Source of the DNA: an uncultured Planctomycetota bacterium
Lineage (GTDB): Bacteria; Planctomycetota; Planctomycetia; Gemmatales; HRBIN36
Direction of reading: 5' to 3'
Length of the DNA stretch: 64,000 nucleotides
NCBI GenBank assembly: GCA_937944855.1
Contig: CALFAY010000013.1
Location: forward strand, 62,001-126,000
The notes beneath the pieces were generated by a model. The model was not told the origin of the DNA. It did not search any database and saw nothing but the letters and a program-made list of their open reading frames with translations. Positions 50,980-63,807 of this stretch are shown here, one piece after another. How positions within the stretch are numbered: position 1 is the first letter of the stretch; each line of letters starts with the position of its first letter. A program made the position numbers and the translations under genes.

Positions 50980-53355
50980 ATGGGAGTGCCACGCGGCGGC
51001 GTTGCGGCTCTGCTCGTCCTCGGAACTCTCATCGCACTCCACGCCGCCGACCAGGCGGATGAAAAGCCTCTCGCTCTAGTGGGCGGGTTGATCCGGACCC
51101 AGACGGAAGCGGGTGATTTCGTCGGCTGTGTGGTCGTGGATCGGGGCCGCATTGCCGCGCTGGGACCGGACGTGCAACCGCCTCCCGGCGCTCGGGTCCT
51201 CAACATCAGCGGCTGCGTCGTGACGCCGGGATTGATCGACGCTCGCAGTCTGGTGGGCCTGAATGCCTCGGCCGCTTCGGAAAGTGGTCGGGACGGCAGC
51301 CTCGACATCCTTGATGCCGTCGATCCGTACTCGGATGCCTGGCGAGATGCCGCTCGACATGGCGTGACCGCCGTGGCCGTACAACCGGCCGGTTCGGGCA
51401 ACCTGGGCGGCAGCGGGGCCATTTTGCGGGCTGCTCCCGGAGAAATGCCGGCCGATCTGGTGATCCGATCCCCCGCGGCCTTACAGGCCTGTCTGGGCAT
51501 CGCGCCCCGGGCCGAGACCCCGGCCGCAAGTCCCCTGCTCGATCTGCTCCGCAGCCGCGGTTTTCAGATTCCTACGCAACCGCAACAACCGGCCGCTCCG
51601 CCTCCGGCCACAACCTTGACCCGATACGCCCAATACGAGCAACTCCGCAGCCAGTTCGAGGCCGCCAAACGCTATGGCGACAACCCCCCGGCCCGCAAAG
51701 ACCGTGCGCGGGAACTGCTCGCCGAGGCTGTTCGAGGGCGCATCCCTGTCCGCATGGAGGTTCACTACGAGGACGACGTCCGCAACGCCCTTCGTCTGGC
51801 AGCCGACTTCAACCTGCGGATGATTTTCGAGCGGGTGGAGCGCTGCCGAGTCATTCCCGAAGAATTGAAACGATCCCGCTGCGGGCTGGTGATCGGGCCG
51901 TTGTGGCCGGAGCGGCCTTCGGATGCGGTGCGAAGTCTGGCTCTGGACGGCCGCAAGTGCGCGGTGGGAACCTTCGGCTCCGGGGCCTTGGCCACGGCTG
52001 CCTTGCGTTACCACGCCGCCGCTGCCGTCGCTGCGGGATTTCCGCGCAACCGCGTCTTGGCTGTTCTGACCAGCGACGCCGCCGATCTGCTTGGCGTCGG
52101 CGACAAGCTCGGCCGGCTGGCCGTTGGAAGGACCGCCGATCTGACCGTCTTCGCCGGCGATCCGCTCGACCCGTCCGCTCCGGTCCGCCTGACCATCAGT
52201 CAGGGCACGATCACTTACGAGAACTGGGAAGCTGAAGCCGTTGAGCTTCCGCGCTCCGTCGCCGTCGCCATTCCCGAGAAACTGCCGAGCCGCTTGACGC
52301 TCCGTACCCGCCGACTCCTCGCCCCCGACGGGACGTGGAAAGAAGGTAGCTTGCACCTCAGCGACGGCCGATTCGTGGCCGAGTCGCAATTCGCTGGCGA
52401 TTCCGCCGTGCTGACCGTGGACCTGGGCGACGCTCCGATCACGCCCGGTCTGGTGTCTGCCCATTTTCCGTTGAATGTGGAGCAGACGCCCGATGCCGAC
52501 GCCTCGCATCTCCGTGCCGGCGATCTGCTCTTCGATCAGCAGGGCCGGTTGCATTCCCAGCTGGAAAGCGGAATGCTCTGGATCGTCGCGGCACCGGGTT
52601 CGGCCAATGTGCTGGCCGGGACGGCAACGCTGCTGCCGACCTCCGATCGGGGAACCTCGGCTTCCCGATCCGACGTGGCCCTCAAAGGCGTGCTGACCGC
52701 TGCCGCCCGCAGCCGGGACCGCTATCCGGTGAGTCTGGCGGGGCAATACGCCCTGGTCGCCGACCGACTTCGCGGGGCGTCCAGCGACACGGCGTTGTAT
52801 CTCCCCGATCCGATCCGGCGGGCTTTGCTCGCCCAGCGAGAGCGAACTTTGGAAGCCGTTCGCTCTCGATCCTGGCCGATGCTCCTGGAAGCTCAGACGC
52901 GAGCCGAGATCGAAGCGGCGGTTCGACTCGTCGAGGAATGCAGGGTCCGCGGCATCCTCGTCCATCCGCGTGAAACGGAGGGCACAGAGGAACTGCTTCG
53001 ATCCGCGAACCTGGCGGTCGTGATCGGTCCGACGCGGCCGACCGACGCCGAACGCACCGTGACAGGCTTGGTACGTCTGATTCAACAGGGCGTTCCCGCA
53101 GCAGTGGGTGGCGACGCCGCGGATATGCGCACCACGGCGGCGATGCTGGCCGCAGCGGGACTGCCCCGGGCCGCGGCACGCAAAACCCTGATCGCCGCCG
53201 ACCTCGACTCCCTGGCTCCGGCCCCGGCAGCGTCCCGTTTCGCCCCGGGCAGTCCGGCGGACCTGGTGATCTGGTCCGGTGATCCGCTCGACCTGACGGC
53301 TCGGCCGCTTGCGGTGATCGTGGAGGGCAAACGCGTCGCGGGAACCGCGCCATGA
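50980..53355 (+). CDS. Exported double amidohydrolase-like protein, metal site lost
   Basis: First gene of a seven-gene array. The 791-residue protein has a signal peptide (MGVPRGGVAALLVLGTLIAL) and two amidohydrolase modules. Module 1 (about 30-420) has the framework VVTPGLIDARSLVGL, where the usual metal-binding HxH is RxL, and ends with LGRLAVGRTADLTVFAGDPL. Module 2 (about 430-790) has APITPGLVSAHFPL (one His, no second) and ends with ADLVIWSGDPLDL. The strand-5, strand-6 and strand-8 ligands are also missing. A Pro/Gln-rich stretch (QIPTQPQQPAAPPP) sits before the strand-5 region. Start supported by GGAG 8 bases upstream. Its stop overlaps the next gene by four bases. Catalysis as a metal hydrolase is unlikely. 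Confidence 0.8.
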   Translation: MGVPRGGVAALLVLGTLIALHAADQADEKPLALVGGLIRTQTEAGDFVGCVVVDRGRIAALGPDVQPPPGARVLNISGCVVTPGLIDARSLVGLNASAASESGRDGSLDILDAVDPYSDAWRDAARHGVTAVAVQPAGSGNLGGSGAILRAAPGEMPADLVIRSPAALQACLGIAPRAETPAASPLLDLLRSRGFQIPTQPQQPAAPPPATTLTRYAQYEQLRSQFEAAKRYGDNPPARKDRARELLAEAVRGRIPVRMEVHYEDDVRNALRLAADFNLRMIFERVERCRVIPEELKRSRCGLVIGPLWPERPSDAVRSLALDGRKCAVGTFGSGALATAALRYHAAAAVAAGFPRNRVLAVLTSDAADLLGVGDKLGRLAVGRTADLTVFAGDPLDPSAPVRLTISQGTITYENWEAEAVELPRSVAVAIPEKLPSRLTLRTRRLLAPDGTWKEGSLHLSDGRFVAESQFAGDSAVLTVDLGDAPITPGLVSAHFPLNVEQTPDADASHLRAGDLLFDQQGRLHSQLESGMLWIVAAPGSANVLAGTATLLPTSDRGTSASRSDVALKGVLTAAARSRDRYPVSLAGQYALVADRLRGASSDTALYLPDPIRRALLAQRERTLEAVRSRSWPMLLEAQTRAEIEAAVRLVEECRVRGILVHPRETEGTEELLRSANLAVVIGPTRPTDAERTVTGLVRLIQQGVPAAVGGDAADMRTTAAMLAAAGLPRAAARKTLIAADLDSLAPAPAASRFAPGSPADLVIWSGDPLDLTARPLAVIVEGKRVAGTAP

Positions 53356-54551
53356 AACCGTGGACCGACACCATGACGGACAACAAGAATCTGTGGACGC
53401 AGCCTTGGCGAAGTTTGCTGCTGACGGCGCTGGTCCTGGTTCCGATCACCGCCCAGGCCGAGGAATTGTTCATCAAGGCCGGCCGGATTTACACGCTGGA
53501 CGGACCGCCGTTGTCGCCCGGTGTCGTCCATGTGCGGGACGGCAAGATCGTCGCCGTCGGACCCGATCTCCCCATCGCCTCGGGCAGCCGTTTCCGCGAC
53601 CTGGGTTCCGGAGTGCTGCTGCCGGGCTTCATTGACGCCGCCAGTTCCGCGGGTCTGGAAGGCGGACGGGCTGAATCCACGGTCGAAGTCAGTCCCCGTC
53701 TCCGCGCCCTCGATGCCGTCGATCCGTCCAGTTCCGCCCTTCGTCGGCTGTGTCATGAGGGTGTCACGACGGTGCACATTCTGCCCGGCACGGACAACGT
53801 CATCAGCGGCTTGTCCTGCATCCTGAAGACCCTGACCGACCGCCGACGACAACCGCTGCGAGCCGACTATGGATTGGCCATCACCACGTCCTCCGATCCC
53901 GTCGAAGGCAATTCCTCGCGCAACCGTCCGGACTCGATCTACAACCGTCAGCCGACCAACCGCATGGGCGTCGTCTGGCTGTTGCGGAGCGAGTTCGGAT
54001 TGGCGACCCGGACCTCGACCCCCGACCGGGCCGTACTCCGCGAAGTGCTCGCCGGAACCAGGCCCGTGTTCTGCACCAGCCGGCTCGACACCGACCTGCT
54101 GGCGGCCCTGCGACTGCGGGAGGAATACCCGATGCGGCTGGTCCTGGTCGGTGGCCAGGAGGCGTATCGTGTGCGCGAGCAGATCGCCGCGGCCGGGGTG
54201 CCGCTGCTGTTGGCCCGCGTCAGCAGCCAAGCTGGCATCGGACCGGAAAGCACGGAGACGATCCTGAATCTGCCGGGGGTTTTACAGCAAGCGGGCATTC
54301 CGATCTGCCTGACCGGCGGCGATCTGCTGGAACAGGCCCGCTGGGCCGTCCGCTTCGGGCTGCCCCGGGATGCCGCCCTGGAAGCGATCACCGTGCAACC
54401 GGCCCGCGTACTGCAACTGGAACAGCGCGTCGGCCGCATCAAGCCCGGTCTGGACGCCGATCTGGTCGCCCTCAGCGGCGATCCGTTCGATTGCTCGACG
54501 CGAATCCTTTGGACCATGATCGACGGCATCATCCGCGCCGAGGAGCCGTGA
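53352..54551 (+). CDS. Exported amidohydrolase-like protein, metal site lost
   Basis: A 399-residue single module. The N-terminus has a hydrophobic export segment (LLLTALVLVPITAQAEE) preceded by a longer polar stretch. The framework is complete (GRIYTLDGPPLSPGVVHVRD, then VLLPGFIDAASSAGL and IKPGLDADLVALSGDPF), but HxH is AxS and the histidine of strand 5 is absent (VFCTSRLDTD). The loop after the first strands is long. The ATG overlaps the stop of the preceding gene (ATGA); the next gene begins two bases after its stop. Confidence 0.78.
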   Translation: MKPWTDTMTDNKNLWTQPWRSLLLTALVLVPITAQAEELFIKAGRIYTLDGPPLSPGVVHVRDGKIVAVGPDLPIASGSRFRDLGSGVLLPGFIDAASSAGLEGGRAESTVEVSPRLRALDAVDPSSSALRRLCHEGVTTVHILPGTDNVISGLSCILKTLTDRRRQPLRADYGLAITTSSDPVEGNSSRNRPDSIYNRQPTNRMGVVWLLRSEFGLATRTSTPDRAVLREVLAGTRPVFCTSRLDTDLLAALRLREEYPMRLVLVGGQEAYRVREQIAAAGVPLLLARVSSQAGIGPESTETILNLPGVLQQAGIPICLTGGDLLEQARWAVRFGLPRDAALEAITVQPARVLQLEQRVGRIKPGLDADLVALSGDPFDCSTRILWTMIDGIIRAEEP

Positions 54552-54553
54552 CT

Positions 54554-55933
54554 ATGCGTTGTCACTCCTTTGTCGTTCTGCTTGTGCTGACCTCGCTATC
54601 CGGGGCGTGGGGCGAAGAGGTCCTGGCGATCAAGGGCGGCAAAATCTTGCCGGTGTCGGGTCCGCCCATCGAAAGCGGCGTGGTGGTGATCCGAAACGGA
54701 AAGATCGAAGCCGTCGGCAAGGACTTGGCCATTCCGCCTGATGCCCGGGTCCTCGACGCCACGGGCAAGGTCGTCATGCCCGGTCTGATCGAAGTCCACT
54801 CCTCCCGCGGCATGGACCAGACCAACGAAACCAACCCGATCGTGCCGTTTTTGTCCGTGGTGGACGCGATTGATCCAAGCCAGGATTACTTCGAGGAGTG
54901 TCGGCGGCAGGGGATCACGACAGCGGCCATCGTCCCGGGAAACAACACGATCTTCGGCGGGCAGGCGGCCATCGTGCGGACCGCCGGCCAGTTCCTCAAC
55001 GAAATGCTCCTCAAGCGGGACATCGGCATGAAGATTTCCCTGCGGCCGACTGGGGACCGCAATCGCATGGGTCAGGTGGCGGCCATTCGTCGGGAACTCG
55101 ATGCCGCCCGGGAGGCGATGACCGAGCGCAGCCGAACCTCGCAGGCCCAGCCGCAGCCGACGCCGGACGCCAAAGGCGGCAACGGCTCCGGCCCGGGACC
55201 GCTGGCCGAAAGCGACGACGAGGACACGCAGCAGCGTCGGCCGCGTCCCGGCGGCGGCGACCAGGCCGGCCAGGAGACCAATCCTGACGCCGCCCTCGTG
55301 CGGGCGGCATTGGCCAAGCTGCTCAAGGGCGAACAGATCGCCTTCATCTACTGCGAACTGCCGATGGACGTGCCCCAGGCGGTCCGGCTGGTCAAGGAAT
55401 ACAAACTGCGGGGCGTGCTCGTGCTTGCTCCGGCTTGTCACAGGGCTGTCAAACAGGTTGCCGCCTCGGGCTTGCCGGTGGTTCTCGAACCGACGCTGGT
55501 GCTGTGGGAGAGCGATCCGCGAACCGGAGAGGAGAAGCAGATCGTACTGCCGAAGCTGTACCGGGACGCCGGGGTGCCGGTGACCTTCACGGTGACGCCG
55601 ACCCAGCCGGCGGGAGCGGGGCGGGGCAGCGGCAGCCAGCCGCCGATTCTGGGCACGAATTTCCTCTGGTTCCAGGCGGCCACGGCCCTGAAATACGGCA
55701 CGCCTTACGACGAAGCCCTGCGGTCGATCACGCTGCGGCCCGCGGAAGTGCTCGGTATCGCCGACAGCCGTGGTTCGCTGGAACCGGGAAAGGCCGCAGA
55801 TGTCGTGATCCTCAGCGGCGATCCGCTCAAGCTCGATACCTGGGTCGAGACCACGATCATTGACGGGCGGGTGGTGTACGAACGGCACAACGACCGCAAG
55901 ATCAAGGCCTTGTTGAAACCGGATGCGGAGTGA
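54554..55933 (+). CDS. Exported amidohydrolase-like protein, metal site lost
   Basis: A 459-residue module. Signal peptide MRCHSFVVLLVLTSLSGAWG; framework VVMPGLIEVHSSRGM, with one His kept and the second replaced by Ser; strand-5 position IAFIYCELP (no His), strand 6 GVLVLAPACH, strand 8 VTFTVTPTQPAG (no Asp). A 45-residue acidic, glycine-rich insertion (AESDDEDTQQRRPRPGGG and neighbours) lies before strand 5. It ends with SLEPGKAADVVILSGDPL, the usual C-terminal composite strand. AGGAG precedes the ATG at 54554 by 8 bases. Confidence 0.8.
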   Translation: MRCHSFVVLLVLTSLSGAWGEEVLAIKGGKILPVSGPPIESGVVVIRNGKIEAVGKDLAIPPDARVLDATGKVVMPGLIEVHSSRGMDQTNETNPIVPFLSVVDAIDPSQDYFEECRRQGITTAAIVPGNNTIFGGQAAIVRTAGQFLNEMLLKRDIGMKISLRPTGDRNRMGQVAAIRRELDAAREAMTERSRTSQAQPQPTPDAKGGNGSGPGPLAESDDEDTQQRRPRPGGGDQAGQETNPDAALVRAALAKLLKGEQIAFIYCELPMDVPQAVRLVKEYKLRGVLVLAPACHRAVKQVAASGLPVVLEPTLVLWESDPRTGEEKQIVLPKLYRDAGVPVTFTVTPTQPAGAGRGSGSQPPILGTNFLWFQAATALKYGTPYDEALRSITLRPAEVLGIADSRGSLEPGKAADVVILSGDPLKLDTWVETTIIDGRVVYERHNDRKIKALLKPDAE

Positions 55934-55972
55934 GTCGTGATACGCTTCTCTCCGCCATGAGTTCGGGTGCAT

Positions 55973-58381
55973 ATGCGAGTTGCTTGTACATTCGCGGCCT
56001 TGTTGAGCTTTGCCGCTTCCCTCCTTGCGGGGGAGGTGCGCGTCTATCACGCGGCCCAGATCTGGCCGGGCAATGGTCCGCCTCTTACGGATGCCGTGCT
56101 GGTCGTCGAGGACGGCAAGATCATTGCTGTCGGCAAAGCGAGCGAGGTGTCGATCCCCGAAACAGCGCTGCGGCACAACCTGGGCAAAGCGGTCATCATC
56201 CCGGGTTTGATCGCCGGAGAAACCGGACTGGCCGAGGGCGGACGCGATGATGCCGTGGCCTTCACGCCGCATCATCGGGCCGTGGATGGCTTCGACTGGT
56301 ACGGCGACTACGCAGCGGTCCTGGCCGGAGGCGTGACCACGGTGCAGGTGTCGCCGGGTTCCCGGCGTCTGGTCCCCGGACAGGGGGCCGTGGTCAAGCT
56401 GCACGGTGCGGACCTGGACCGCCGCACGCTCAAAGCTCCCGAGAGCCTCCGTATCGTCCTCGGCGAGGCGTACAAAAATCCGCCCCGCATCTACGAGCCG
56501 CCTGTCGGCGCGGTTTCCGTCGAGCGACCGCTTCTGCCATCGCAACCGCAATTGGCCGGCAGCCTCGCGGCCGCCGTCGCCGGACTTCGCAGCGCCTTCG
56601 TCGCCGCCAAAAGTCGCCGTCCTCAATCGGATCCGATCCTGGACCCCCTGGCCTTGCCGATGACCGAGAAGTTGCGAGTTCGCGTCAGTGCTTCCGGGCC
56701 TGGAGATGTTCCGGCGATGTTGACCGTGGCGAAAGAGTTCGACCTGCGGCTGACGCTTGTGGAGCCGAACCTGAGCGGCACCAAAGTCGCCGAGTGGAAG
56801 CCCCACGTGGAGGGGGTGGTCCTGAGCATCGGCATCCGTCCGGGCATGATCGGGGACGGACTGCCGCCGCGTCCCCCGGCGGACCTCGCCCGGCAACTCC
56901 TGGTCGCCGGTCTTCCAGTCGCCCTCAAGCCGGTGCAGGATGCCGATCTAAAGGACCTGCTCTATCTGGCCGGGCAGTTCCGACCGCAACTGAGCGAAGT
57001 CGAGGCCTTGCGGCTGGTCACGGCTGATGCCGCTGCAGTGCTCGGCGTCGCTAACCGCGTTGGTACCCTGGCCGCAGGCAGAGACGCCGATTTCGTCGTC
57101 CTCAGCGGGCCGCCCTTCGCTGTGCCGACACGGGTCCGCCAGGTGTATGTCGATGGGGAGCCGGTCATCTCGGCCGGGGAGAGCAAACGGCGGCTGCTGC
57201 GGGCAGGGCGGATCTTCACCGGCACCGGCGAAGCGCTGAGCGATGCCGCGGTTCTCATCGACCACGGCAAGATTCGTGCCGTCGGCCGGGAGGTCGCCCT
57301 GCCGCCCGATGCGGTCGTGCAGGAATTTCCCGACGCCGTCATCGTCCCGGGCTTCATTGACCTGGGGGTGACGTTCGGCGTCGGCGGTTCGCTGTCGTCG
57401 GCGGTGCCATTGCAGACCCGACTCGGCGAACGGCTGGTGATCGGCGACCCAGCGTACAAGCCGGTACGACAGGCCGGTGTCACCACCGTGCTGCTTTCCG
57501 GTCCTGCTCCGGCCGCCGTCGTCGCCTACAAGCCGACCGATAAACCGCGGGTGGTTCAGGATCCCGTGGCCTTGCGTTTCGCCTTGCGGGGCAATTTGTC
57601 TTCGGCCTCGGCATCGCTGCGGGAAACGCTCCGGGCCGGCAAAGCCTACGCCGACGCCTGGGACCGCTACGAGAAGGAATTGCCGCTCTACGAACAGAAA
57701 AAGAAGGAGTACAACGCTCAGATCGCCGCTCAACAACAGGCTCGACAAGCATCGGGCGACCAGGAACAGAAGGCTGGAGAACAAAAGGCGGACGAAAAAA
57801 AGGACGAGAAGAAGCCGGAACCGCCTCGGCCCCCGGAACGTCCGCAGGCCAACCCGGCGCTGGAACCGTACCGGGCGCTGTTCTCCCGGCGGATTCCCGC
57901 GCTGGTCGAGGTCCAGCGGGAGGACGCGATCCGCCTGGCCATCGCCATCTGCCGCGAGGAGTTCGATCTGAAGTTGGTCCTCGTCGGAGCGGAGGACGCG
58001 CCCCGAGTCGGGAAGCTGCTGGCGGAAAAGGCCGTGGGCGTGGTCCTCCGGCCGCAGCTGGTCCGCGCTTCCGAGCGAGACGAAATCAATGTGCCGATGG
58101 AACTGTCCCTCAGCGGAGTCGCTTTTGGCTTTCAGTCCCAGGCTGGTCTCGGCTCCCGGCTGCTTCCGGGGGCGGTCGGCTACGCCGTGCATCGGGGCCT
58201 GGCTCCGCAGGACGGCCTGCACGGTCTGTCCGTCCAGGCGGCCCGGCTCCTGGGGCTGGATCAGGTCGGCACGCTGACGGCGGGCAAGGATGCCGATCTG
58301 GTCGTGCTCTCCGGATCGCCTTTCGACCCGGCGACGCGCGTTCTGGCCGTGATGATTGACGGCGAATGGGTTCACGAGTGA
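55973..58381 (+). CDS. Exported double amidohydrolase-like protein, metal site lost
   Basis: A protein of about 800 residues with a signal peptide (VACTFAALLSFAASLLAG) and two modules. Module 1 has VIIPGLIAGETGLAEGG, with no HxH; module 2 has VIVPGFIDLGVTFGVGG, also without it. Both end in the typical GxDADxVVLSG pattern. Between the helix DAWDRYEKELPLYEQK and the strand-5 region of module 2 lies a Gln/Lys/Glu-rich, proline-rich linker of about 50 residues. ATG at 55973 or GTG at 55967 are possible starts, neither with a good ribosome binding site. It follows the previous gene after 39 bases. Confidence 0.78.
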   Translation: MRVACTFAALLSFAASLLAGEVRVYHAAQIWPGNGPPLTDAVLVVEDGKIIAVGKASEVSIPETALRHNLGKAVIIPGLIAGETGLAEGGRDDAVAFTPHHRAVDGFDWYGDYAAVLAGGVTTVQVSPGSRRLVPGQGAVVKLHGADLDRRTLKAPESLRIVLGEAYKNPPRIYEPPVGAVSVERPLLPSQPQLAGSLAAAVAGLRSAFVAAKSRRPQSDPILDPLALPMTEKLRVRVSASGPGDVPAMLTVAKEFDLRLTLVEPNLSGTKVAEWKPHVEGVVLSIGIRPGMIGDGLPPRPPADLARQLLVAGLPVALKPVQDADLKDLLYLAGQFRPQLSEVEALRLVTADAAAVLGVANRVGTLAAGRDADFVVLSGPPFAVPTRVRQVYVDGEPVISAGESKRRLLRAGRIFTGTGEALSDAAVLIDHGKIRAVGREVALPPDAVVQEFPDAVIVPGFIDLGVTFGVGGSLSSAVPLQTRLGERLVIGDPAYKPVRQAGVTTVLLSGPAPAAVVAYKPTDKPRVVQDPVALRFALRGNLSSASASLRETLRAGKAYADAWDRYEKELPLYEQKKKEYNAQIAAQQQARQASGDQEQKAGEQKADEKKDEKKPEPPRPPERPQANPALEPYRALFSRRIPALVEVQREDAIRLAIAICREEFDLKLVLVGAEDAPRVGKLLAEKAVGVVLRPQLVRASERDEINVPMELSLSGVAFGFQSQAGLGSRLLPGAVGYAVHRGLAPQDGLHGLSVQAARLLGLDQVGTLTAGKDADLVVLSGSPFDPATRVLAVMIDGEWVHE

Positions 58382-58423
58382 CATGGGGTTGACAATCCCT
58401 CTGACGCATCAGGAAAGCCTTCC

Positions 58424-59674
58424 ATGTTGGCAGGAAGATTTTTGCCCGGCATCGTTGTGACTTGTGCGGCCGCCCTGCTACTGCCGGCGCTGGTGGGGGC
58501 CGGCGAGAAGCCGAAACTGGCCATCCACGTCGCCAGGGCGATCCCTTGCGCCGGCGAGCCGATCGAAAACGCCACGATCCTTGTCGCGGACGGCAAGATC
58601 AAGGCGGTGGGCAAGCGTGGCGAATTGGCCGTGCCCGAAGGCTACCAGGTCATCGACCACGGCACCCGTTGGGCCATGCCGGGCATGATTGACGCCCACA
58701 GCCACATCGGCGGGGCGATGGGCGACATCAACGAGATGGTCTATCAGACCAATCCCGAGTTGCGGGTGCTGGACGTGATTCGGCCGCACAACGAGCAGCT
58801 GAAAAACGCCGTGGCCGGAGGCGTGACCACGATCACCTTCATCCCCGGTTCGGGCACCAACATGGGCGGTTGGGGGGCGCTGATGAAGACCGGCCCAGGC
58901 AAGCTCGAAGACGTGCTCCTCCGCTTCCCCGGCGTGCTGAAGATCGCTCAGGCGGGCAATCCGGAGCGACGCGGCGGCGAGGTCGGCAGCGGCCGCATGG
59001 GCATGAACCACATCATCCGGGAGCAGCTCCGCGAGGGCATGGGCTACGTCAAGGACTGGGACGATTACGAAGCAGGCCGCCGTCCGGACAAACCCGCCGT
59101 CAATCTCCGCCTGGAATACTTCAAGCCGCTGTTCCGCCGACAGATTCCCGTGCTCGTCCACACGCAGGGTTACCAGGTCATCATGAGTACCTTGCGGATT
59201 CTGCACGACGAGATGAACCTGAAGGTCATCATCGGCCACGGCTGCTTTGACAGCAACTTGCTCTCGGAGGAGATCCTGAAGCGGGGCATCCCGGTGATGG
59301 CAGGGCCGCGCGGCTTCCGGTATGATCCGGCTGACGGCCAGGTGAAAGGGCAGGTGGCTGGCTTCGCGGATCGGGGCGTCAAGGCCCTGGGCGTCAACAC
59401 CGATTCGCCAGTCGTGCCGCAGGAGGAACTGGCCTTCCAGGCGACCATGGCGGTGCGGCTCGGTTGGAATGACGAGGACGCCATCCGCGGACTGACCATC
59501 GAACCGGCCAAGGCCCTGATGATCGAGGACCGCGTCGGTTCCCTCGAAGTCGGCAAGGATGCGGACATCGTGATTACGACCGGCTCCATCCTCGACCCTC
59601 GCCATTATGTCGTGGAAGTGTTCATTGACGGGCGTTCGGTGTACGACGTGAAAAAAGACCGACGACGGTTTTAA
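58424..59674 (+). CDS. Exported amidohydrolase with intact metal-binding residues
   Basis: The only module of the array with the full metal site of the family. The 416-residue protein has a signal peptide (MLAGRFLPGIVVTCAAALLL), HxH as His92 and His94 in MIDAHSHIGGAMG, the strand-5 His246 in IPVLVHTQGYQ, the strand-6 His272 in KVIIGHGCFD and the strand-8 Asp327 in ALGVNTDSPVV. It also has the helical MGMNHIIREQLREGMGYVK segment of the imidazolonepropionase/prolidase-like group. Substrate is unknown; hydrolysis of a cyclic amide or an N-terminal amino-acid bond is a family-based guess. AGGA lies 9 bases before the ATG. The next gene starts three bases after its stop. Confidence 0.85.
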   Translation: MLAGRFLPGIVVTCAAALLLPALVGAGEKPKLAIHVARAIPCAGEPIENATILVADGKIKAVGKRGELAVPEGYQVIDHGTRWAMPGMIDAHSHIGGAMGDINEMVYQTNPELRVLDVIRPHNEQLKNAVAGGVTTITFIPGSGTNMGGWGALMKTGPGKLEDVLLRFPGVLKIAQAGNPERRGGEVGSGRMGMNHIIREQLREGMGYVKDWDDYEAGRRPDKPAVNLRLEYFKPLFRRQIPVLVHTQGYQVIMSTLRILHDEMNLKVIIGHGCFDSNLLSEEILKRGIPVMAGPRGFRYDPADGQVKGQVAGFADRGVKALGVNTDSPVVPQEELAFQATMAVRLGWNDEDAIRGLTIEPAKALMIEDRVGSLEVGKDADIVITTGSILDPRHYVVEVFIDGRSVYDVKKDRRRF

Positions 59675-59677
59675 GCC

Positions 59678-60931
59678 ATGCGCTTGCTAGCCCTGTCATG
59701 TTTGTTGGCCCTGCCGGCGTTGGCGACGAGCCAGCAGATCGTGGTCATTCACAATGCCGTGGTCGAGACGCTGGGACCGGCGGGCCGTCTGGAGAACGCC
59801 ACGGTAGTCATCCGCGACGGCAAGATCGCCGCCGTGGGCAAAGATCTGCCCGTGCCTGAGTTCGCCGAGGTGATCGACGCCCAGGGCGGAACGCTCATGC
59901 CGGGGATCGTTGATCCGTACTTCCAGGTCGCCATCACCCCGGCCACCGCCGACAGCGGGGAACGAACCACCGTCGTTCGGGGGCGGACCTTTCCGTTCGG
60001 CGGATTCGGCGGAAGGCCAGCGTCGGGCTTCACCCGCATCGCCGACAACTTCTATCCCTACGACCCCGGCCTCAAGCCGCTGCCTCGGGTCGGCATTTGT
60101 CGGGCGAACGTCGTCTCCAGCGGCGTCGGCCAGGCGGCGATGATCCGCTGCACGCCTGATCAGCCGGAAACGATGCTGGTGCAGCCGGACGGTCCGATCT
60201 TCGCCACTGTCACCAACAGCACGGAAAGTCTCGACCCGATTCGTTCGCGCCTGGGGCGGAGCGCTCGTCCCTCGGGCGGGTCGGGTACAGGTTCGGCGTC
60301 GTCATCCGCAACGGTCAACGATCCGTGGAAGGACGTAATGGAAGGGAAGAAGCCGCTCATCATCGAGGCCAATACCGCCGCGGCGGTCGTCCACGTCGTG
60401 CGGATGTTGCAGGACCACCCGAACGTCAGGCTGGTCCTGTTCGTGGCCGGCGACGCCGTTCCGGAAAACCTGCCGCTGCTGAAGGAACGCAAAGTATGCG
60501 TGGTGCTGCGGCCTCGCTTTGACTTCCTGCCGGCCTCGCGCGACCGCTTCAGCGCCCCGCGAATGCTGCACGAAAACGGTGTGGAGGTGCTTTTCAGTCT
60601 GACGGCCCGTCCACCGCGTCCGCCAGCGGCCACGCCGCCGACCCAGCAACAACAGCAACAACAGGAAGAAGAGCAGCAGACCGTGCCGGGCGTGGAGCGG
60701 GATTTTCCGCTGTTTCCCGTGGCCATGCAGGTGAAAGCTGGACTGCCCCGACAGACCGCCCTGGAAGCCCTGACGAAAAAACCCGCTGCCTTGCTCGGCT
60801 GGGAGAAGACGCACGGCAGCATCGAACCGGGAAAGGTTGCCGATCTGCTCTTGTTCACCAGCGATCCGCTCGACCCCGCCAGCCGACTGCGGCTCACGCT
60901 CATCGATGGGAGGATAACCCATGCGCACTAA
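59678..60931 (+). CDS. Exported amidohydrolase-like protein, metal site lost
   Basis: A 417-residue module. Signal peptide MRLLALSCLLALPALATS; framework TLMPGIVDPYFQVAIT, where HxH is PxF; strand-5 position PLIIEANTAAAV with Glu in place of His; strand 8 without the Asp. A Gly/Ser-rich segment (RPSGGSGTGSASSS) sits before strand 5, and a run of glutamines and glutamates (TQQQQQQQEEEQQ) interrupts the later part. It ends with IEPGKVADLLLFTSDPLDP. It starts three bases after the intact enzyme gene and overlaps the next gene by 11 bases. Confidence 0.78.
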   Translation: MRLLALSCLLALPALATSQQIVVIHNAVVETLGPAGRLENATVVIRDGKIAAVGKDLPVPEFAEVIDAQGGTLMPGIVDPYFQVAITPATADSGERTTVVRGRTFPFGGFGGRPASGFTRIADNFYPYDPGLKPLPRVGICRANVVSSGVGQAAMIRCTPDQPETMLVQPDGPIFATVTNSTESLDPIRSRLGRSARPSGGSGTGSASSSATVNDPWKDVMEGKKPLIIEANTAAAVVHVVRMLQDHPNVRLVLFVAGDAVPENLPLLKERKVCVVLRPRFDFLPASRDRFSAPRMLHENGVEVLFSLTARPPRPPAATPPTQQQQQQQEEEQQTVPGVERDFPLFPVAMQVKAGLPRQTALEALTKKPAALLGWEKTHGSIEPGKVADLLLFTSDPLDPASRLRLTLIDGRITHAH

Positions 60932-62378
60932 TCGCTCGATCCTCTGCTTTGTTGTGACAGGGATACTGGGATCGGTTCTCATCGCCGAAGAGAATAAAGA
61001 TTCGCAATCGGCCAAGCCGGCTGCTCCGCCGCTGGCCATCGTCGGCGGGGATGTTTACACGGTTTCGCACGGGGTCATCCCGCGGGGCACGGTCTTGATT
61101 CAGGAGGGCAAGATCGCGGCCGTCGGAGCGGATGTCGCCATTCCTGAAAACGCCCTTCGTATCGACGCCTCCGGCAAGAGCGTGACGCCGGGCTTCGTCG
61201 CCATCAGTGCGTCCAACGTCGGCATCCGCACGGGCACCGGAGCACGGGGCCGAACCGGCGAACCGGCGCCGCCGCAGGGGGTCACGGGCCGGGTCGTGGA
61301 CGCCATCAATCCCTACGACCGCAACATCCTCTTCTGTCTGGCCTCGGGCATCACCACGGCATGTGTCGAAGTGTCCGGAGGCGGGGCCGGTCGCTTCGGT
61401 CGGGACGCCCTCGACCCAGAAGAACTGGACGAAACCAATGTCTGCCCCTGCTGCGGCATGACCTATCTACCCTTGGAACCGATCACGGCTCCCAATCCGA
61501 CGGAGCGGACGCCGCGGCGTCATGCCGTACTGCGGATGACCTTCGGCGAGCTGGAGCGGATGCTGGTCAAGGAGTCGCCGTTCTACCATCTTCCCGCCGG
61601 AGCCATTGCTGGCGCGTTCAACAAGCATCAGTGGCGTGAGACGATCAAGCGGGCCAGGGAACAAGTGCGGGATCGTAACGAGACGGAAGACGAAGGCGGC
61701 TTCGGCGGTTTCGGGTTCGGCGGCGGCTTCGGACGCCGGGTGCCGGAAGAGGTCGTGCAACTGGTCGAGAAGAAGATTCCGCTGCGGACCGACGCCGCTT
61801 CGGTCGAGCAGATCCGCACTGCCTTGAGCCTGGCCAAGGAACTCGGATACTCGGTGATTCTCGAAGGAGTCCATGAAGCCTGGCTGATTCCCGAAGAACT
61901 CAAAGAAGCTCAGGCGCAGGTCATCCTTACGCCACGGAGCCGACGTCGGCCGCAACTCGGCAAGGAGGACTCGACCGGCAGTTCCATCGAAACCGCTGGC
62001 ATTCTGGAGCGATCCGGCGTGCCATTCGCCGTGGCTACGTTAGGCAATTCGGTGAACCTCGACGGCATTCCAGGTCGGGACCTGACCAGCCTCATGCTCG
62101 AAGCGGCCTTTGCCGTCCGCGGCGCATGCAGCGACGACACGGCTTTAGCGGCCATCACGATCCATCCTGCGCGGATGCTCGGTCTCGACAAGCGGATCGG
62201 CACCATCGAGGTCGGCAAGGACGCGGACCTGGTCATCCTCACGGGGCCGCCGCTGGATTACCGATCGCATGTGGACAAGGCCCTGGTCGGCGGCAAGGTC
62301 TATTACGACCGGCTGCGGGAGAACATCTACCCCGATCTCCCGAACCGTCCCCGCAGCGCCGCCCAGACGAAGCGGTAG
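60921..62378 (+). CDS. Exported amidohydrolase-like protein with a CPCC insertion, metal site lost
   Basis: The last gene of the array. The 485-residue module has a signal peptide (MRTNRSILCFVVTGILGSVL), the framework SVTPGFVAISASNVGI (no HxH), a strand-5 position with PLRTDAAS (no His) and a C-terminal end IGTIEVGKDADLVILTGPPL. Unique to it is CPCCGM (Cys175, Cys177, Cys178) in ETNVCPCCGMTYLPLEP, a possible metal or disulfide site. A Gly/Phe-rich loop (EDEGGFGGFGFGGGFGRR) lies before strand 5. AGGA precedes the ATG, which lies inside the preceding gene. Confidence 0.78.
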   Translation: MRTNRSILCFVVTGILGSVLIAEENKDSQSAKPAAPPLAIVGGDVYTVSHGVIPRGTVLIQEGKIAAVGADVAIPENALRIDASGKSVTPGFVAISASNVGIRTGTGARGRTGEPAPPQGVTGRVVDAINPYDRNILFCLASGITTACVEVSGGGAGRFGRDALDPEELDETNVCPCCGMTYLPLEPITAPNPTERTPRRHAVLRMTFGELERMLVKESPFYHLPAGAIAGAFNKHQWRETIKRAREQVRDRNETEDEGGFGGFGFGGGFGRRVPEEVVQLVEKKIPLRTDAASVEQIRTALSLAKELGYSVILEGVHEAWLIPEELKEAQAQVILTPRSRRRPQLGKEDSTGSSIETAGILERSGVPFAVATLGNSVNLDGIPGRDLTSLMLEAAFAVRGACSDDTALAAITIHPARMLGLDKRIGTIEVGKDADLVILTGPPLDYRSHVDKALVGGKVYYDRLRENIYPDLPNRPRSAAQTKR

Positions 62379-62502: not shown

Positions 62503-63807
62503 ATGAAGACGACGAAGTGGACGGGGCATCTGGCCGCTTGCTTGGTTTTTCTCTGGGCAACTCCGGCATGGGCAGACGGCCCACCGGCGGGCAAAGTGGC
62601 GGCCGTTTCCGGAGCCTTGTTGCAACAGAGCGGCAACGGTCCGTCCTGGAAGCCGGCCAAACCCGGCGTGTCTGTTGCAGCTGACACCTTGCTGCTCGCC
62701 CTGCCGGAAGCGGAGATCGACTCGCTCAACGGCAACGTCCGCCTGCACCTGATGGCCGACCTGTCCCACCGCTTACCGGAGCCGATCTACGAGGGCGCCG
62801 TTGTCCTGAATCAGCCCAAGGGAGTCGATCTGGACTTCACGCTGGACCGGGGACTGGTTCTCGTCAGCCATCGCCGTCCGCGTGGTGAAGCGACGGTGCG
62901 CGTCCGCTTCGACAGGCATGTGTGGGACATCGTTCTGGAAAAGCCGGGAACCCGCATCGCTCTCGCGAAGGTGGGCCGTCATGCGGGAGGCATGCGGCCA
63001 TCCTTTGAAGACACCGCCAAGCCGTTCAAGCCCGATCAGCCGACCTTGCACGTTTACCTGCTCGTCCTCAGCGGCGACATCGAGCTGACCACGGGCGGCC
63101 TGTGCTTCGCCCTGGATGCTCCGCCCGGACCGGCCATATTTCACTGGAGCAACGTGGACGGCGACGAACCCGCTCCGCGACACCTCGAGCAACTTCCGAG
63201 TTTCGCTCAACCGCTCACCGCCGAAGAACGCCAATTGGCCGAGACCGTCAATCAGCGAGCCAAGAAACTCAACGAGTCGCCCCCCGCCAAGGTCGCCGCC
63301 GAATGCCTGGAAGACGCCGACCCGCGCTTTCGCAGGATGGGCGTTACCCTTCTGGGGGCAATCGATGACCTGGAGGGGCTTCTGAACGCACTCCAGAATC
63401 CCAAGCATCCCGAAGTGCGGGAACAGGCCGTGGTCATTCTCCGTCACTGGCTGGGCCGCAAGGCGGGACACGATGCGTTACTTTACCAGTATCTGACGAG
63501 CAAACGGCACCTGACCCCGGCTCAAGCGGCGGGATTCTTGCAACTTCTGTACGGCTTCAGTGAAGAGGACGCCGAATCGCCGGAACTGTACTCGACTCTG
63601 CTGGCGTACCTCAACCACGATTCGATCGCGGTGCGGGAACTGGTGCGTTATCATTTGTACCGTCTGGTCCCGGCCGGCAGCGACATTCCCTTCGACGCTG
63701 CTGATCCGCCGGCGAAGAGGGCCGAGGCGTTGAAGCGGTGGAAAGCCCTGATTCCTCCGGGCGAGTTGCCACCCAGGGCCATTCCCAAGTCAGGCGGGTT
63801 ACCGTAG
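62503..63807 (+). CDS. Exported FecR-like protein
   Basis: A 434-residue protein with a signal peptide (TGHLAACLVFLWATPAWADG). The beta-rich part after it (VAAVSGALLQQSGNGPSW, EIDSLNGNVRLHLMADL, DRGLVLVSHRRPRGEATV) resembles FecR-type domains that bind or sense in the periplasm. Residues from about 240 on are helical, with an LLNALQNPKHPEVREQAVVI-like repeat pattern that resembles HEAT repeats. Function is unknown. The ribosome binding site is weak, but a strong promoter lies just upstream. An unrelated exported protein begins 44 bases after it. Confidence 0.65.
   Translation: MKTTKWTGHLAACLVFLWATPAWADGPPAGKVAAVSGALLQQSGNGPSWKPAKPGVSVAADTLLLALPEAEIDSLNGNVRLHLMADLSHRLPEPIYEGAVVLNQPKGVDLDFTLDRGLVLVSHRRPRGEATVRVRFDRHVWDIVLEKPGTRIALAKVGRHAGGMRPSFEDTAKPFKPDQPTLHVYLLVLSGDIELTTGGLCFALDAPPGPAIFHWSNVDGDEPAPRHLEQLPSFAQPLTAEERQLAETVNQRAKKLNESPPAKVAAECLEDADPRFRRMGVTLLGAIDDLEGLLNALQNPKHPEVREQAVVILRHWLGRKAGHDALLYQYLTSKRHLTPAQAAGFLQLLYGFSEEDAESPELYSTLLAYLNHDSIAVRELVRYHLYRLVPAGSDIPFDAADPPAKRAEALKRWKALIPPGELPPRAIPKSGGLP

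What the first reader, a model, noticed from the sequence alone, without database searches (positions are those of the whole stretch)
50980..62378. Seven-gene exported amidohydrolase array with only one intact active site
Nine amidohydrolase modules in seven adjacent plus-strand genes share the family framework (P-G-[LFIM]-[IV] after the first strands, and the closing GxDADxV strand). Only the fifth gene (58424-59674) keeps HxH, both later histidines and the aspartate; in the others HxH reads RxL, AxS, HxS, GxT, LxV, PxF and so on. All have signal peptides, gaps are 39 bases or less, and no gene is broken. Retention of eight metal-free modules beside one active enzyme argues for a structural or binding role, for example a complex around the active subunit. 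The complex itself is inference.
Basis: partly seen in the sequence, partly recalled or inferred. Interest (0 to 1): 0.8.

Follow-up and report, generated by a model that had tools for sequence, protein, structure and literature searches.

The report
One enzyme with eight dead copies
Bacteria of the phylum Planctomycetota carry an ancient row of exported genes in which one working metal-dependent hydrolase sits among eight related protein modules that have all lost the catalytic residues yet were kept together across the phylum, which suggests they form a machine around the one working part.

Summary
Seven co-directional genes (50980-62378) encode nine amidohydrolase modules. Only g5 (58424-59674) keeps the full binuclear site: HxH, Lys, His, His, Asp. 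I found the same gene order, whole or cut by contig ends, in 85 distinct planctomycete loci. All 133 g5 modules keep all six ligands. All 529 other modules keep at most 3 of the 5 His/Asp ligands (371 keep none). The genes are on one strand in 85/85 loci, and the degenerate genes show dN/dS 0.09-0.19 against a same-genus relative. In 294 phylum genomes, g5 and degenerate g7 co-occur in 71 of 75 genomes that have either. Extra copies arise only at g5 (up to five). Relatives fuse one intact module to one or two degenerate ones (A-d, d-A-d), and two Alphaproteobacteria have an intact+degenerate gene pair; the four relatives seen in Firmicutes and Actinobacteria are solo. Closest solved structure: T. 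maritima 3OOQ. Most likely this is an exported hetero-paralogous assembly in which eight pseudoenzyme modules scaffold or gate one catalytic subunit, much as ClpR does for ClpP. Conservation and linkage are shown. Physical assembly, metal content and substrate are inference.

The parts
50980..53355 (+). g1, 791 aa, two degenerate modules (g1a about 50980-52251, g1b about 52252-53352), signal-like N terminus
   Evidence: ORF; Pfam; ligands RxL/E/R/G in g1a and HxP/E/H in g1b; orthologs in 85-locus set
53352..54551 (+). g2, degenerate module (AxS), start overlaps g1 stop as ATGA (alternative start 53373)
54554..55933 (+). g3, degenerate module keeping only the first His and the Lys of the site (HxS, K)
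   Evidence: His kept in 68/73 and Lys in 66/69 orthologs
55967..58381 (+). g4, 804 aa, two fused degenerate modules (g4a about 55967-57190, g4b about 57191-58378), GTG start
   Evidence: AlphaFold2 pLDDT 89.1, best fold match 3OOQ
58424..59674 (+). g5, the only intact module: H92, H94, K173, H246, H272, D327
   Evidence: 133/133 orthologous modules intact; pLDDT 90.2, 3OOQ TM 0.80/0.86
58697..58705 (+). HxH motif of g5 (H92, H94)
58940..58942 (+). K173 of g5, putative carboxylated-lysine bridging ligand
   Evidence: invariant in 133/133 g5 modules; on predicted strand 172-174; the role is inferred by analogy
59159..59161 (+). H246 of g5
59237..59239 (+). H272 of g5
59402..59404 (+). D327 of g5
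59678..60931 (+). g6, degenerate module (no ligand kept)
60921..62378 (+). g7, degenerate module, overlaps g6 by 11 bases
   Evidence: co-occurs with g5 in 71 genomes

Best explanation
The array encodes an ancient exported assembly built from amidohydrolase paralogs. One subunit, g5, is a binuclear metallohydrolase of the T. maritima 3OOQ subfamily. The eight other modules are pseudoenzymes that keep the fold but not the metal site, and they form a fixed heteromeric scaffold that holds, stabilises or gates the catalytic subunit outside the cytoplasm. I propose it arose from a homo-oligomer whose duplicated subunits specialised, all but one losing catalysis while keeping interfaces. In some lineages the catalytic slot is served by several g5 isoforms on the same scaffold. 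Shown: sequence, order, linkage, conservation, selection, loss of ligands, predicted fold of g5 and g4. Inferred: export (from signal segments), physical assembly, lack of metal in the eight modules, and hydrolysis of an amide (perhaps peptide-like) substrate by g5.
For: Intact/degenerate split is complete: 133/133 g5 modules against 0/529 others with four or more of the five His/Asp ligands. Order g1a-g1b-g2-g3-g4a-g4b-g5-g6-g7 conserved, one strand in 85/85 loci. dN/dS 0.094-0.187 in degenerate genes, 0.056 in g5. g5 and g7 co-occur in 71 of 75 genomes with either, Fisher p 3e-63, not corrected for phylogeny. Relatives fuse one active module to one or two degenerate ones, or carry them as adjacent genes. 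g1a-g1b and g4a-g4b, and in L078-L081 g1a-g1b-g2, are fused. Only g5 multiplies, up to five copies. g4 modules keep the fold. Intact+degenerate pairs also in Alphaproteobacteria, while homologs without a signal peptide are solo. Precedents: inactive dihydroorotase needed for ATCase (PMC7053772), ClpR in Clp cores (PMC7966870).
Against: No interface was modelled or measured. g4's inter-module placement is uncertain (pTM 0.66). Degenerate genes evolve faster than g5 (34-61% against 72-73% identity to the more distant arrays), so partner surfaces may be less constrained than a rigid complex would suggest. No known homolog complex of this kind. Some genomes appear to lack g3, so not every module may be essential.
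Confidence: 0.6

Rival explanations
1. The eight modules are independent exported binding proteins that capture substrates, products or surface polymers for g5 without forming a stable complex.
For: All have signal segments. Several groups (g2, g3, g7) keep conserved polar residues that could line a pocket.
Against: Fusions of active and inactive modules in relatives and fixed single copy number with strict colinearity fit a complex better. g1a, g1b and g6 conserve few polar positions.
Confidence: 0.2
2. Some degenerate modules are neofunctionalised enzymes with a different, metal-poor or metal-free chemistry.
For: g3 keeps one His and the Lys almost everywhere. g1b keeps up to three His/Asp ligands in a few genomes. 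Conserved acidic residues at two site positions in g1a.
Against: No group has a second complete set of conserved ligands. g1a, g1b and g6 have only 20-27 positions conserved at 85% or more, few of them polar.
Confidence: 0.12
3. The degenerate genes are decaying duplicates with no function.
For: Loss of catalytic residues by itself.
Against: No frameshifted array gene was seen among the complete arrays examined; dN/dS is well below 1. The eight modules form mostly separate clades spanning the phylum, with conserved order and signal segments.
Confidence: 0.02

Closest known systems
Thermotoga maritima amidohydrolase, PDB 3OOQ, and its solo homologs in Firmicutes and Actinobacteria
   Same: Same subfamily by sequence (E 6.5e-51), fold (TM 0.80/0.86) and all six metal-site residues.
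   Different: Homologs in Firmicutes and Actinobacteria are single genes without an evident signal peptide and without degenerate neighbours; the gene context of 3OOQ itself was not examined. Here the enzyme is exported and sits among eight pseudoenzyme modules.
Pseudomonas ATCase with inactive dihydroorotase (pDHO)
   Same: A catalytically dead amidohydrolase-fold protein retained because an enzyme needs it for assembly and activity (PMC7053772).
   Different: There one dead amidohydrolase serves a transcarbamoylase in the cytoplasm. Here eight dead modules accompany an active paralog of the same family, with signal peptides.
ClpP/ClpR protease cores of cyanobacteria and plastids
   Same: Paralogous active and inactive subunits in one hetero-oligomer; Arabidopsis has five active and four inactive (PMC7966870).
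   Different: Different fold and chemistry; the ratio here is one active to eight inactive, and the assembly is unproven.
NCBIfam XaaProDiPepCaul (Caulobacter-type Xaa-Pro dipeptidase)
   Same: Best-scoring curated family for g5 and same superfamily.
   Different: g5 scores 71.7 bits against a cut-off of 500, so it is not a member.

Membership tests
Amidohydrolase superfamily (Pfam Amidohydro_1/3) | Sequence match above the curated cut-off | tested here: met
   All seven proteins
Amidohydrolase superfamily (Pfam Amidohydro_1/3) | Amidohydrolase fold | tested here: met
   g5 and the double module g4 by AlphaFold2 and Foldseek; other modules by sequence only
Amidohydrolase superfamily, catalytic members | HxH, Lys, His, His, Asp metal site | tested here: met
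   g5 only, 133/133 orthologous modules; the other eight modules fail in 529/529
Amidohydrolase superfamily, catalytic members | Bound metal and hydrolase activity | not testable with these tools
   Needs purified protein
T. maritima 3OOQ subfamily | Best structural and sequence match with the same six ligands | tested here: met
   (g5)
NCBIfam XaaProDiPepCaul | Score above the equivalog cut-off | tested here: not met
   71.7 of 500 bits for g5
Enzyme-pseudoenzyme paralog complexes (ClpPR type) | Inactive paralogs retained with an active one | tested here: met
Enzyme-pseudoenzyme paralog complexes (ClpPR type) | Physical hetero-oligomer | not testable with these tools
   Only indirect evidence from gene fusions
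ATCase-pDHO complex | Adjacent transcarbamoylase partner | tested here: not met
   No transcarbamoylase in the array; the immediate neighbours in the window are a ketoacyl-synthase-like gene and a HEAT-repeat-like gene

The most novel reading that the evidence does not exclude
A phylum-wide exported nine-module particle in which eight different ancient pseudo-amidohydrolases, all descended from a single catalytically dead ancestor, form an obligate asymmetric scaffold around one exchangeable catalytic subunit. The 1+1 and 1+2 systems of other planctomycetes and of Alphaproteobacteria would be its simpler relatives.
Probability: 0.35. Interest if true: 0.88.

Novelty: new variant of a known kind. 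Interest (0 to 1): 0.76.

Why it matters
Enzyme-pseudoenzyme complexes are known mostly as one or a few dead partners, often in eukaryotes or organelles. Here a bacterial phylum keeps eight dead paralogs per active enzyme, apparently outside the cytoplasm, with complete separation between intact and lost active sites. Intermediate grades (solo, 1+1, 1+2, 1+8) survive in living genomes. That makes a long-standing question directly testable: how a homo-oligomer turns into a hetero-oligomer with dispensable active sites. It also bears on annotation, since eight of these nine modules should probably not be called hydrolases.

Tried and rejected
(1) Decaying duplicates: rejected by dN/dS, co-inheritance and intact frames. 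(2) Substitute metal sites: listed positions conserved at 85% or more in each group; none formed a second ligand set, though g3 and g1b are partial. (3) Function from neighbours: ORFs within 5 kb of the 85 arrays gave no neighbour shared across the phylum, only lineage-specific downstream genes. (4) A promoter or terminator fixing the operon: matches close to what shuffles give. (5) Literature on amidohydrolase arrays or pseudo-amidohydrolases in Planctomycetes: nothing relevant in the held library; the library is open access only. A metal-dependent bile salt hydrolase preprint concerns another amidohydrolase family. (6) I first read the 1338-1354 aa proteins of L078-L081 as the three-module type; tree and profiles show they are g1a-g1b-g2 fused. 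(7) Some g5 copies marked 'd' came from too strict a motif; the alignment shows all g5 copies intact. In one search, some type A/B active modules appear to lack one ligand only because of a one-column shift; the motifs (LQH, KSD) are present.

Full report
What is there. The window is G000:C13:62001-126000 of a 4.0 Mb draft genome. The nearest named relative carrying the array is a Gemmatales MAG, SKYG27 (L049). Seven plus-strand ORFs at 50980-62378 are separated by at most 42 bases or overlap. All match Amidohydro_1 and Amidohydro_3; g1 and g4 hold two modules each, giving nine. Module-to-module BLASTP mostly shows 20-35% identity over the longer alignments. Each gene starts with a signal-peptide-like segment. 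This is found in most orthologs of each gene and is rare at internal module starts used as a control (11 of 87; a hydropathy rule, not SignalP).

Active sites. g5 carries H92, H94, H246, H272 and D327, plus K173, invariant in orthologs and on a predicted strand. That is the position expected for the carboxylated lysine of binuclear amidohydrolases, by analogy. The T. maritima homolog 3OOQ has the same six residues. None of the other eight window modules keeps more than two of the five His/Asp ligands.

Generality. A profile search of 60 relatives, of 199 genomes of the class and a scan of 84,980 species genomes (best 80 of 134 confirmed loci kept) gave 85 distinct loci with the array or a contig-truncated part of it. 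The scan loci are titled planctomycetes or unnamed MAGs. One is the isolate Tautonia sociabilis (L070), so the array is not a metagenome artefact. Profile assignment shows the order g1a-g1b-g2-g3-g4a-g4b-g5(1-5 copies)-g6-g7, with a few local swaps, uncertain calls for g1b, and truncation at contig ends. In these loci 133 of 133 g5 modules keep all five His/Asp ligands and the Lys. The other 529 modules keep none (371), one (130), two (25) or three (3), and never four or five. The scan patterns contain no ligand residue, so the result is not built in. All genes of an array lie on one strand in 85/85 loci, and 461 of 496 gaps are 50 bp or less.

Selection and co-inheritance. Against the same-genus genome, dN/dS (NG86) is 0.094 to 0.187 for the degenerate genes and 0.056 for g5. 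Longer comparisons have high dS and are only indicative. In 294 genomes drawn across the phylum, g5 is found in 73, g7 in 73, both in 71; g3 in 70, 67 of them with g5. The exceptions are mostly fragmented drafts, plus one lineage (f43) in which g3 falls below the cut-off. The Fisher p-value does not correct for shared ancestry.

Simpler relatives. In the same class, two-module proteins (~900 aa) have an intact first and a degenerate second module, and three-module proteins (~1400 aa) have an intact middle and two degenerate outer modules. Both also occur as split genes. Among seven homologs found on replicons outside the phylum, four from Firmicutes and Actinobacteria are solo intact genes without an evident signal peptide, two Alphaproteobacteria have an intact gene followed by a degenerate one, and a Hymenobacter locus looks like degenerate-active-degenerate with broken frames. 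In this small sample, then, a signal peptide goes with a degenerate partner. A tree rooted on 3OOQ, with ligand columns removed, puts all degenerate modules in one clade (support 0.97) next to g5. This suggests one dead ancestor, but long-branch attraction is not excluded, and g4b and g6 are not cleanly monophyletic there.

Structure. AlphaFold2 gives g5 at pLDDT 90.2; the best PDB match is 3OOQ, TM 0.80 by query and 0.86 by target. The double degenerate g4 is predicted at pLDDT 89.1, and its best-matched module again fits 3OOQ (TM 0.82 by target), so the fold is kept without the site. The placement of the two modules relative to each other is not confident (pTM 0.66).

How it works, most likely. 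I think g5 is an exported binuclear hydrolase held in a heteromeric assembly of eight pseudoenzyme paralogs. Direct contact is suggested by repeated fusion of degenerate modules to each other and, in relatives, to the active module. Expansion of g5 alone, to as many as five copies, suggests a fixed scaffold with a catalytic position that can take isoforms. The substrate is unknown. An amide or peptide is plausible from the nearest enzyme families and from a peptide transporter next to the Qipengyuania pair, but that is weak evidence.

Comparison with the known. It would work like pseudo-dihydroorotase with ATCase (PMC7053772) and ClpR with ClpP (PMC7966870). By membership, g5 belongs with the 3OOQ subfamily of amidohydrolases. 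It is not a member of the Xaa-Pro dipeptidase equivalog (71.7 bits against 500). I found no description of such an array in the held open-access papers, which does not prove there is none.

Verdict. A retained non-catalytic role for the eight modules is well supported; a complex is the best explanation but unproven.

Noticed in passing
L014, L016, L018-L020, L024, L027-L028, L046-L048 (two-module); L011-L012, L015, L017, L021-L023, L025 (three-module): Separate fused amidohydrolase proteins in the same class follow the same rule: one intact module plus one (A-d) or two (d-A-d) degenerate modules. Split-gene versions exist (L035, L037, L039-L042, L044-L045).
   Followed up: partly
L099, L107-L109, L114-L115, L117, L119, L122-L123: The catalytic gene g5 is present in three to five tandem intact copies while the degenerate genes stay single.
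   Followed up: partly
L078, L080, L081 (first gene of the array): g1a, g1b and g2 are fused into one protein of about 1340-1354 aa; in other deep lineages g1a and g1b are separate genes.
   Followed up: partly
L131:4285-7070 (Qipengyuania citrea plasmid): Intact+degenerate amidohydrolase pair lies between a peptide MFS transporter gene and an FKBP-type isomerase gene; the intact one starts with a lipobox-like sequence. Hints at an exported peptide-related function.
   Followed up: no
L129:3092-6930 (Hymenobacter volaticus plasmid): A Bacteroidota homolog reads as degenerate-active-degenerate across several ORFs, with frame breaks (real decay or sequencing error).
   Followed up: no
g3, window 54554-55933 and orthologs: g3 keeps the first His of HxH (68/73) and the site Lys (66/69) though all other ligands are lost; it may bind something at the old site.
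   Followed up: no
G234, G258, G277 (family code f43): Genomes with g5 and g7 but no g3 match at the cut-off used; possible lineage-specific loss or divergence of g3.
   Followed up: no
window 62503-63807, + strand: The gene just downstream encodes a signal-bearing protein with a marginal HEAT-repeat match below Pfam's cut-off; it does not appear to be part of the conserved array.
   Followed up: no
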